Positions 23,620-24,240 of a DNA stretch of 64,000 nucleotides are shown piece by piece (within the stretch, counting starts at the first letter, position 1; each line of letters opens with the position of its first letter). The position numbers and the translations under genes are program-made. The stretch is from a virus, in the IMG/VR virus record IMGVR_UViG_3300044816_000098, positions 62,001-126,000 of that record; one strand, 5' to 3'. The notes beneath the pieces are model-generated. The model worked only from the letters and a program-made list of their open reading frames with translations. It searched no databases and was not told the DNA's origin.

Positions 23620-23767
23620 CACGGCTGAGAACAAAGACGTCTGTGGGCTTAGGTGACCGGCGCTCTAGCCAGACTGAGCTATCCCCCGATGAGTCGGGGG
23701 AGAAGGATTCGAACCAACGACATCCGGTTCCAGGGTTGAAGTATCCACAAACTACGCATCAGCCGCG
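23620..23767 (-). ncRNA. Y-RNA-like unit A with permuted tRNA-like module
   Basis: 148 nt. Closing stem CGCGGCTG (5', 23760-23767) with CAGCCGTG (3', 23620-23627). Motif GATGCGTAG (23752-23760), five bases, GGATACTTC (23738-23746) on the 5' side; TTTGTTCTC (23627-23635) on the 3' side. The internal module reads, in order, T arm (GTTGGTTCGAATCC), TCCCCCG, a 6-base loop, CGGGGGA, then D arm TAGCTCAGTCTGGCTA. A tRNA is thus circularly permuted, with its acceptor stem capped, as in bacterial YrlA RNAs. Motif numbers are plus-strand coordinates. Confidence 0.85.
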
Positions 23768-23775
23768 AAGCTGAA

Positions 23776-23907
23776 GCCCTCCCGTGAACAAGTCGGCTGC
23801 GGGACTAGGTGGTGCCTTGTGGGTCTCGAACCCACTCATGCAAGAAGGTATGAGCCGACCAGCACTTTTCCTGTAGGAAGTATCCGCCGCCTACGCATCG
23901 GGAAGAC
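23776..23907 (-). ncRNA. Y-RNA-like unit B
   Basis: 132 nt. Closing stem GTCTTCCCG (23899-23907) with CGGGAGGGC (23776-23784), 9 bp with wobbles. Motif GATGCGTAG (23891-23899), five bases, GGATACTTC (23877-23885); 3' motif CTTGTTCAC (23784-23792). The centre holds a standard T arm GTGGG-TTCGAGA-CCCAC but no clear D arm, so the tRNA-like module is partial. Confidence 0.8.
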
Positions 23908-23917
23908 GCGTGTGCAC

Positions 23918-24067
23918 CATCAAGATGCTGAAGGACCTCACGAGAACAAGGCACATCAGGAAACAGACTAGGCGCCCGCCCGAGCCCGGAGTTGAACCGG
24001 AATCGTCTACTTATCAGGTAGAAGTAACCCGACGCTACGCATCGAGACGCCCTTCAGCATGTTGATG
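23918..24067 (-). ncRNA. Y-RNA-like unit C
   Basis: 150 nt. Long outer stem: 17 pairs with one C-C mismatch between 24051-24067 and 23918-23934. Motif GATGCGTAG (24035-24043), five bases, GGTTACTTC (24021-24029); 3' motif CTTGTTCTC (23942-23950). T arm TCCGG-TTCAACT-CCGGG is followed by a G/C-rich stretch with a reduced D-like part (GGGCGCCTAGTCTG). Confidence 0.82.
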
Positions 24068-24071
24068 ACGA

Positions 24072-24240
24072 TCCACAGCGGTGAAGCACGCCCGAGGACA
24101 AGGCGACTCGGGAACGTAGGTGCTCTATCCAAACTGAGCTACGGGAGCCGAAGCACCCGGTGGGAGTTGAACCCACGACCACCCGCTTAAGAGGCGAAGT
24201 AACCCGCGTCTGCGCATCAGGCGCACATCGCCGCTGTGGA
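24072..24240 (-). ncRNA. Y-RNA-like unit D with UUCG-capped permuted tRNA module
   Basis: 169 nt. Outer stem TCCACAGCGG/CCGCTGTGGA (10 bp, perfect) and inner stem GTGCGCCTG with CGGGCGTGC. Motif GATGCGCAG (24210-24218), five bases, GGTTACTTC (24196-24204); 3' motif CTTGTCCTC (24094-24102). The module is textbook: T arm GTGGG-TTCAACT-CCCAC, CGGGTGC, tetraloop TTCG, GCTCCCG, TA, then D arm GCTCAGTTTGGATAGAGC. The acceptor stem is 7 bp with one U-U mismatch and is closed by the tetraloop instead of having free ends. Confidence 0.88.

What the first reader, a model, noticed from the sequence alone, without database searches (positions are those of the whole stretch)
23620..24240. Circularly permuted tRNA-like modules with capped acceptor stems
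In units A and D the order along the RNA is T arm, 3' acceptor strand, short loop, 5' acceptor strand, D arm, the reverse of a tRNA gene. In unit D the acceptor strands CGGGTGC and GCTCCCG are joined by a TTCG tetraloop and followed by the D arm GCTCAGTTTGGATAGAGC; in unit A TCCCCCG and CGGGGGA pair perfectly over 7 bp. This matches the tRNA mimicry reported for YrlA. A tRNA scanner may report fragmentary tRNAs here, so annotations of this genome may be wrong.
Basis: partly seen in the sequence, partly recalled or inferred. Interest (0 to 1): 0.85.

Follow-up and report, generated by a model that had tools for sequence, protein, structure and literature searches.

The report
Phage Y RNAs mimicking permuted tRNAs
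A virus that appears to infect soil actinobacteria carries five small scaffold RNAs next to its own Ro60 protein gene, two of which contain a tRNA-shaped part written in rotated order; this type of RNA is already known from bacteria, but in about half of the relatives, including one here, the rotated part appears to keep its whole anticodon arm, which the descriptions I could read do not include.

Summary
On the minus strand (24350-23614), just upstream of a phage Ro60 gene (rsr, 23527-21842), lie five Y-RNA-like units (E, D, C, B, A). Units A and D have the order T arm, 3' acceptor strand, 4-6 nt cap, 5' acceptor strand, D arm. Rfam YrlA matches both, below its gathering score. Circularly permuted tRNA mimicry is the published property of bacterial YrlA, so this much is a new member of a known kind. 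Comparing 193 such modules from 93 phage-side and 79 actinobacterial loci adds two things. (1) The tertiary Levitt pair 15-48 covaries (109 G-C, 74 A-U, no G-U), so the modules keep a tRNA core. (2) There are two classes. In class I (unit A) the anticodon loop is replaced by the Ro60 stem, as in YrlA. In class II (93 of 193, unit D) a whole anticodon arm survives, with the Ro60 stem inserted between nt 28 and 29; un-permuted, unit D reads as tRNA-Lys(CUU). Class II is absent from the Rfam model and the papers I could read; the primary papers were not available. ARAGORN miscalls 36 of 193 modules as linear tRNAs, though none in this window.

The parts
24271..24350 (-). Y RNA unit E: minimal unit without a tRNA module (Ro60-type stem and short hairpin)
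   Evidence: conserved 5' core TGCGAAG..GGTTACTTC and 3' core CTCTGTTCTCG; MFE -24.3
24072..24240 (-). Y RNA unit D: Ro60-type stem plus complete permuted tRNA module (class II)
   Evidence: YrlA 36.9 bits; MFE -79.2, z -3.37, shows anticodon-like arm, T arm, capped acceptor and D arm
24182..24196 (-). unit D local anticodon hairpin CGC-CTCTTAA-GCG then GG (nt 29-43; anticodon CUU)
   Evidence: loop and stem statistics of 81-109 modules
24160..24176 (-). unit D T arm GTGGG-TTCAACT-CCCAC; C48 of the Levitt pair at 24177
24142..24159 (-). unit D capped acceptor: CGGGTGC-TTCG-GCTCCCG
   Evidence: 6 of 7 pairs
24119..24139 (-). unit D D arm (24139-24122; G15 at 24134), A26 and nt 27-28 (CC) that pair with G43-G42
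23919..24066 (-). Y RNA unit C: anticodon-like hairpin (loop CTGATAA, 24022-24006) and T arm (24001-23985), no D arm; partial module
   Evidence: Rfam tRNA 21.3 bits (below cut-off) over hairpin and T arm
23770..23918 (-). Y RNA unit B: T arm 23835-23819, no permuted acceptor or D arm found; partial module
23614..23773 (-). Y RNA unit A: Ro60-type stem plus permuted tRNA module (class I)
   Evidence: YrlA 27.6 bits; descriptor; z -2.86
23682..23701 (-). unit A capped acceptor TCCCCCG-ACTCAT-CGGGGGA
   Evidence: 7 of 7 pairs
23656..23679 (-). unit A D arm (23679-23662), G26, and CCGGT (nt 27-31) that pairs 5 of 5 with ACCGG 23728-23724 (nt 39-43)
23702..23728 (-). unit A ACCGG (39-43), variable loop ATGTC (C48 at 23719), T arm
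23578..23617 (-). long near-perfect hairpin with T-rich ends between array and rsr, terminator-like
   Evidence: sequence and fold; the terminator scan, whose loop limit is 8, did not list it
21842..23527 (-). rsr: phage Ro60/TROVE protein, 561 aa, with the metal-site motif DTSDS, T462 and D483
   Evidence: PF05731 E 1e-20; PDB TROVE proteins 9l5y/9kop E 1.5e-21; D389, S391, S393, T462, D483 invariant in an alignment of 10

Best explanation
The locus is a phage Ro60 RNP cassette: an array of five Y RNAs read toward rsr. Each unit has a long stem made from its 5' and 3' strands, with a conserved internal loop (GATGCGNAG..GGTTACTTC facing TTGTTCTC), which the phage Ro60 ring most likely binds (inferred). 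The top of units A and D is a circularly permuted tRNA: the acceptor is closed by a small cap, so it has no free CCA end and should not be chargeable, and the RNA is opened in the anticodon arm, where the Ro60 stem is grafted. In unit A the graft replaces the anticodon loop. In unit D it enters between nt 28 and 29, and a full anticodon arm (CUU) remains. The most likely function (inferred from published YrlA/RYPER work) is a scaffold: the tRNA-like end docks a tRNA-binding partner, such as PNPase or another host or phage RNA enzyme, to the Ro60 ring. Several different tops in one array would let one Ro60 serve several partners. Shown here: anatomy, covariation, conserved linkage to rsr. Inferred: Ro60 binding, partner, function.
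For: rsr identity. Rfam YrlA hits to A and D. The same cassette upstream of rsr in most relatives: 67 of 93 phage-side loci (window included) and 63 of 79 actinobacterial loci carry at least one permuted module, and 1-10 units per locus were counted. Acceptor pairs vary but stay paired: 28-31 of 31 non-redundant modules, against a shuffle maximum of 19-24 at pairs 2-7. The Levitt pair 15-48 was not selected for and covaries: 109 G-C, 74 A-U, 2 A-C, 0 G-U (non-redundant Fisher p 2.9e-12); 40 loci hold both types. Outer Ro60-type stems are unit-specific (9.66 vs 5.93 for swapped partners, p 2.4e-12). Un-permuting: 77 of 93 phage modules become ARAGORN tRNAs, 0 of 93 in native order, 0 when letter-shuffled. 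Un-permuted unit D aligns over 94-100% of its length to ordinary phage tRNA-Arg and tRNA-Lys genes at 75-84%. Prior work on YrlA: PMC8394870, PMC11472068, PMC7790460.
Against: YrlA scores are below Rfam's gathering score of 69 bits. No transcript data. Unit A's MFE does not show T and D arms. Units B and C lack a D arm. Swapping only acceptor and anticodon strands still left 21 of 93 un-permuted modules callable, so ARAGORN is not a sharp test on its own. The 5' core differs in detail from the Rfam YrlA consensus. No promoter-like site was found.
Confidence: 0.85

Rival explanations
1. The class II modules, and perhaps unit D, act as anticodon-bearing decoys or baits: uncharged, capped tRNA mimics that occupy host anticodon nucleases, modification enzymes or synthetases, with Ro60 holding or presenting them.
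For: Class II loops behave as anticodon loops: U33 103/109, A38 102/109, A34 only 5/109, nt 36-37 UA 63, GG 19, CA 11, much like 120 real tRNAs in the same loci. Das et al. suggested YrlA could competitively inhibit an anticodon nuclease (PMC7790460). Phage tRNAs are known or proposed to counter anticodon nucleases (PMC11555353, PMC10264068).
Against: Class II is about as common in bacterial chromosomes (44 of 95 modules) as in phages (49 of 98), so it is not a phage-only counter-defence. Anticodons are varied and match no single known nuclease. Half of the modules have no anticodon.
Confidence: 0.2
2. These are true permuted tRNA genes, as in some red algae and archaea: the transcript is cut and joined to give working tRNAs.
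For: 81 of 81 loop-selected class II modules un-permute into tRNAs that ARAGORN accepts. This phage encodes Thg1 near rsr, and phage Kela has an RNA ligase gene directly before rsr.
Against: Caps are 3-10 nt in nearly all modules, often UUCG or UUCGG, leaving little room for RNase P, N73 and CCA. The splice point carries a conserved Ro60-type stem. Half of the modules have no anticodon. Thg1 neighbours rsr in only one other locus, L062.
Confidence: 0.04
3. The modules are junctions of two ordinary tandem tRNA genes (3' half of one, 5' half of the next).
For: Such a junction gives the same order of arms; the Stenotrophomonas phage hit to unit A is exactly that.
Against: No complete tRNA flanks A or D. 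Their acceptor strands pair with each other (7/7 and 6/7) across a 4-6 nt cap; 169 of 193 modules pair 7/7. Both sit between Ro60-type strands.
Confidence: 0.01
4. The class II hairpin is only a Ro60- or protein-binding hairpin whose U-turn loop resembles an anticodon loop by convergence.
For: CUNNNAA also occurs near this place in 27 of 144 units without a detected T arm, some with good stems (L024, L031, L036, L078).
Against: The hairpin sits at exactly tRNA spacing (27 at offset 0 and 20 at -1, against 0-2 at other offsets). Pairs 27-43 and 28-42 form with the strand after the D arm (30/33 and 29/33, shuffle maximum 25), completing a five-pair anticodon stem. Nt 36 and 37 are correlated as in tRNA.
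Confidence: 0.2

Closest known systems
YrlA bacterial Y RNA (Rfam RF02553; structure 6CU1)
   Same: Circularly permuted tRNA-like domain of T arm, capped acceptor and D arm on a Ro60-binding stem, next to rsr; ARTEMIS superposes 6CU1 on tRNA as a circular permutation (PMC11472068)
   Different: Scores below gathering; five units in one array; 5' core GATGCGNAG..GGTTACTTC; class II (unit D) keeps an anticodon arm that the Rfam consensus structure does not have
Phage Y RNAs of mycobacteriophages (Chen 2014, cited in PMC12282133) and the putative ones of Listeria phage CKA15
   Same: Y RNAs beside a phage Rsr gene
   Different: Unnamed 154-kb actinophage-like virus; mixed array of full, partial and minimal units
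RYPER (Rsr, Y RNA and PNPase of Deinococcus radiodurans)
   Same: Ro60 ortholog plus Y RNA scaffold expected
   Different: Partner enzyme not tested; phage-encoded Ro60
tmRNA and permuted tmRNA
   Same: tRNA-like part in an RNA that is not a tRNA
   Different: No tag frame sought or reported, no free acceptor end; only sub-threshold Rfam matches
Permuted tRNA genes of red algae and archaea (from general knowledge)
   Same: 3' half precedes 5' half
   Different: Very short cap; Ro60-type stem at the junction; no sign of maturation

Membership tests
YrlA / bacterial Y RNA | encoded next to a Ro60 ortholog (rsr) | tested here: met
   TROVE gene directly downstream, same strand
YrlA / bacterial Y RNA | long stem from 5' and 3' ends with conserved sequence | tested here: met
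   S1 and S2 stems in all five units by sequence and fold; unit-specific pairing across relatives
YrlA / bacterial Y RNA | permuted tRNA-like domain: T arm, capped acceptor, D arm | tested here: met
   units A and D; not met in B, C, E
YrlA / bacterial Y RNA | Rfam RF02553 gathering score of 69 bits (a curation threshold, not a biological feature) | tested here: not met
   36.9 and 27.6 bits; the related phage cassettes scanned also fall short
YrlA / bacterial Y RNA | binds Ro60 and is modified by DusA and TruB | not testable with these tools
   needs biochemistry
Ro60 / TROVE protein | TROVE domain plus VWA domain with MIDAS site | tested here: met
   PF05731 74.8 bits; MIDAS residues invariant in an alignment of 10; VWA match itself below Pfam's cut-off
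RYPER complex | Y RNA tethers Ro60 to PNPase | not testable with these tools
   no interaction data
linear tRNA gene | acceptor strands at the two ends, cloverleaf in normal order | tested here: not met
   no ARAGORN or Rfam tRNA at 23614-24350; native order 0 of 93 modules called
permuted tRNA gene with maturation | processed to a functional tRNA | not testable with these tools
   short caps argue against it

The most novel reading that the evidence does not exclude
About half of actinobacterial and actinophage YrlA-type modules, including unit D here, are complete anticodon-bearing tRNAs, opened between nt 28 and 29 and grafted onto a Ro60-binding stem. Their varied anticodons (mostly NNU with A37) would address Ro60 particles to enzymes that read, modify or cut specific anticodon loops.
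Probability: 0.3. Interest if true: 0.8.

Novelty: new variant of a known kind. Interest (0 to 1): 0.55.

Why it matters
The permuted tRNA mimic itself is known, but an anticodon-bearing class would change what these RNAs could bind and makes testable predictions: t6A or m1G at position 37, binding by synthetases or anticodon nucleases. The Levitt-pair covariation is strong sequence evidence for a tRNA core across many phages and hosts. It also has a practical side: a tRNA finder turns roughly one in five of these modules into false linear tRNAs, and GenBank phage records already contain such calls, which could contaminate surveys of phage tRNAs and their anticodon loops.

Tried and rejected
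Junctions of tandem tRNAs: rejected for A and D, shown to be the cause of the Stenotrophomonas hit. Overlapping ORFs on the plus strand (23466-23774, 24236-24541): purely mechanical listing; 24361-24783 had no Pfam match. Thg1 as a fixed partner of rsr: found beside rsr in only one relative, L062. Promoter scan: none found. Direct blastn of the array against phages: only 5-8% coverage. The peak of CUNNNA[AC] at offset +6 is an artefact of the invariant UACUUC. A three-sequence MAFFT alignment was not useful, and the RNA model and pair-counting tools were not used; counting was done in Python on descriptor-aligned modules. ARAGORN's call rate on un-permuted sequences with swapped strands (21/93) shows that it tolerates weak stems, so weight was put on covariation. 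Primary Y RNA papers not held.

Full report
What the window is. The window lies in a 154,156-base virus record. On the minus strand a 561-aa protein at 23527-21842 matches the TROVE (Ro60) family (PF05731, E 1e-20) and solved TROVE proteins (E 1.5e-21). Its metal-site residues (D389, S391, S393, T462, D483) are invariant in an alignment of ten. Its closest relatives in GenBank are actinophage proteins annotated 'Ro-like RNA binding protein', which is why I call this virus actinophage-like; its host is not known.

The array. Upstream of that gene and on the same strand, five units follow each other: E 24350-24271, D 24240-24072, C 24066-23919, B 23918-23770, A 23773-23614, then a long near-perfect hairpin at 23617-23578. 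Each unit has a 5' strand of the form TGCGNAG..GG(T/A)TACTTC and a 3' strand around TTGTTCTC, flanked by complementary arms. Rfam's YrlA model matches D (36.9 bits) and A (27.6 bits), both below its cut-off of 69. Nothing in this stretch is called a tRNA by ARAGORN or by Rfam at the gathering score.

Is it chance? A descriptor (T arm, 7-nt strand, 3-14 nt cap, complementary 7-nt strand, 2 nt, D arm) gives on average 0.225 hits per shuffled window. Unit D folds better than all 200 shuffles and its unconstrained fold contains the anticodon-like hairpin, T arm, capped acceptor and D arm. Unit A folds better than 198 of 200, but its best fold does not show the T and D arms, so for A the case rests on the descriptor (with a relaxed T stem), the YrlA hit and comparison.

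Relatives. Loci around Rsr relatives were taken from GenBank phages, IMG/VR and bacterial genomes. With the same kind of descriptor, 67 of 93 phage-side loci (the window counted as one of them) and 63 of 79 bacterial loci have at least one module upstream of rsr, 98 and 95 modules in all. Some IMG/VR records are prophages of sequenced isolates, so the two sets may overlap a little. A looser core pattern counts 1-10 units per locus, mostly 2-4; some of these pattern hits lie in coding sequence, so the counts are approximate.

Evidence for a tRNA fold. In 31 non-redundant phage modules acceptor pairs 2-7 are kept in 28-31 cases against shuffle maxima of 19-24, with many pair types; the descriptor required at least 5 of 7 pairs, so this is partly built in. 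The Levitt pair between nt 15 and 48 was not part of the descriptor: 109 G-C, 74 A-U, 2 A-C, 8 other, and no G-U among 193; the non-redundant set gives p = 2.9e-12. Forty loci hold both kinds. A14 was used as a filter, and U8 and GG in the D loop entered the score, so those are not independent evidence. The outer Ro60-type stem pairs far better with its own 3' partner than with partners swapped between units (9.66 against 5.93, p 2.4e-12), the inner one less so (6.65 against 5.39, p 1e-6).

Un-permuting. When the two halves are put back in tRNA order with a generic anticodon loop, ARAGORN of 93 modules, A and D included; in native order 0 of 93; letter-shuffled 0; with acceptor and anticodon 5' strands swapped between modules 21. 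Un-permuted unit D aligns over 94-100% of its length to ordinary tRNA-Arg and tRNA-Lys genes in phages at about 75-84% identity; the native order gave only short partial hits.

Two classes. Fixed tRNA geometry was used to look for an anticodon arm upstream of the variable loop. A seven-nt loop of the form (C/U)UNNNR(A/C) with a stem occurs in 27 phage modules at offset 0 and 20 at offset -1 (variable loop of 4 nt), against 0-2 at other offsets. Choosing hairpins by stem only gives 109 of 193 modules; their loops have U33 in 103, A38 in 102, A34 in only 5, and nt 36-37 = UA 63, GG 19, CA 11. Real tRNAs in the same loci give UA 54, CA 22, AA 17, GG 13 of 120. Splitting the modules: in class I (100) all five pairs between nt 39-43 and the strand after the D arm are supported (66-76 of 90 against shuffle maxima 46-59) and there is no local hairpin. 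In class II (93) only 27-43 and 28-42 pair with that strand (58 and 57 of 59), and 29-41, 30-40 and 31-39 pair locally (the local stem was a selection criterion there). Selecting by loop only, the hybrid stem is paired in 30, 29, 30, 29 and 31 of 33 distinct stems, against shuffle maxima of 25, 25, 28, 23 and 23, and all 81 such modules un-permute into tRNAs. The reading is that in class II the RNA is opened between nt 28 and 29 and the Ro60 stem is inserted there. Unit D is class II with loop CUCUUAA; unit A is class I. Forty-five loci have both classes, and class II tends to lie further from rsr (median 320 against 157 nt).

Caveats on class II. CUNNNAA also appears near this position in 27 of 144 units in which no T arm was detected, a few with good stems, so a hairpin of this kind may be older than, or independent of, the tRNA module. 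Nothing here shows that the anticodon is read by anything.

False tRNAs. ARAGORN calls a linear tRNA across 36 of 193 modules, using the Ro60-type 5' strand as acceptor and D arm. The acceptors of these calls pair at 4.9 of 7 positions on average, against 6.9 for the permuted reading and 6.65 for other tRNA calls in the loci. GenBank carries several: GiJojo gene 29 (Arg-cct), Alone3 gene 36 (Ser-gct), Frankenweenie gene 148 (Pro-tgg), VanLee gene 125 (Arg-tct), and by inspection a tRNA-Gln upstream of the TROVE gene of CcrColossus.

Comparison with the known. Bacterial YrlA is described as a 90-150 nt RNA with a long end-to-end stem and a domain like the D, T and acceptor arms, modified by DusA and TruB, tethering Rsr to PNPase (PMC8394870). 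Its structure superposes on tRNA as a circular permutation (PMC11472068). Y RNAs were reported in mycobacteriophages, and a Listeria phage may have them (PMC12282133). Jumbo phages with TROVE proteins were noted (PMC7824862). Rfam's YrlA consensus has a closing stem and no anticodon hairpin, and the papers read mention none; but Chen 2014, Wang 2018 and Sim 2020 were not held, so I cannot exclude that class II is described there.

Mechanism. Shown: anatomy, linkage to Ro60, tRNA-core covariation, capped acceptors, two classes. Inferred: Ro60 binds the lower stem; the cap prevents charging and 3' trimming; the tRNA-like top docks a tRNA-binding partner. A decoy role against anticodon enzymes is possible but is not favoured over scaffolding, because class II is about as common in bacterial chromosomes as in phages.

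Noticed in passing
20107-21069 (+): Thg1-like tRNA guanylyltransferase (PF04446, E 5e-29) near rsr and convergent with it; beside rsr in only one other locus (L062).
   Followed up: partly
24358-24372 and 24438-24452 (-): Two copies of TTGGTAG..ATAGT just upstream of unit E; possible phage promoter or operator; 2 found against 0.29 expected.
   Followed up: partly
2500-2660 (+): Two isolated T-arm-like hairpins with acceptor-like strands downstream of a tRNA-Leu, not called as tRNAs; one could form a short acceptor/T-arm minihelix.
   Followed up: no
L013 2269-2343, L015 2274-2347, L019 2245-2335, L020 2204-2275, L184 858-925: GenBank tRNA annotations that overlap Y RNA modules upstream of rsr and are probably false linear tRNAs.
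   Followed up: yes
L031 1247, L036 1791, L024 2075: Units without a detected T arm whose short hairpin has a perfect stem and an anticodon-like loop (CTGTAAA, CTGCTAA).
   Followed up: partly
L021 1729-2481 and 307-392: Phage Kela has an RNA ligase gene directly before rsr, and ARAGORN reports an unannotated tRNA-Pyl(cta)-like gene nearby.
   Followed up: no
L183 850-1550: Bacillus phage G has several minimal Y-RNA-like units (GAAGCGG..CAGTTACTTC) before its TROVE gene; no tRNA module was seen by eye.
   Followed up: no
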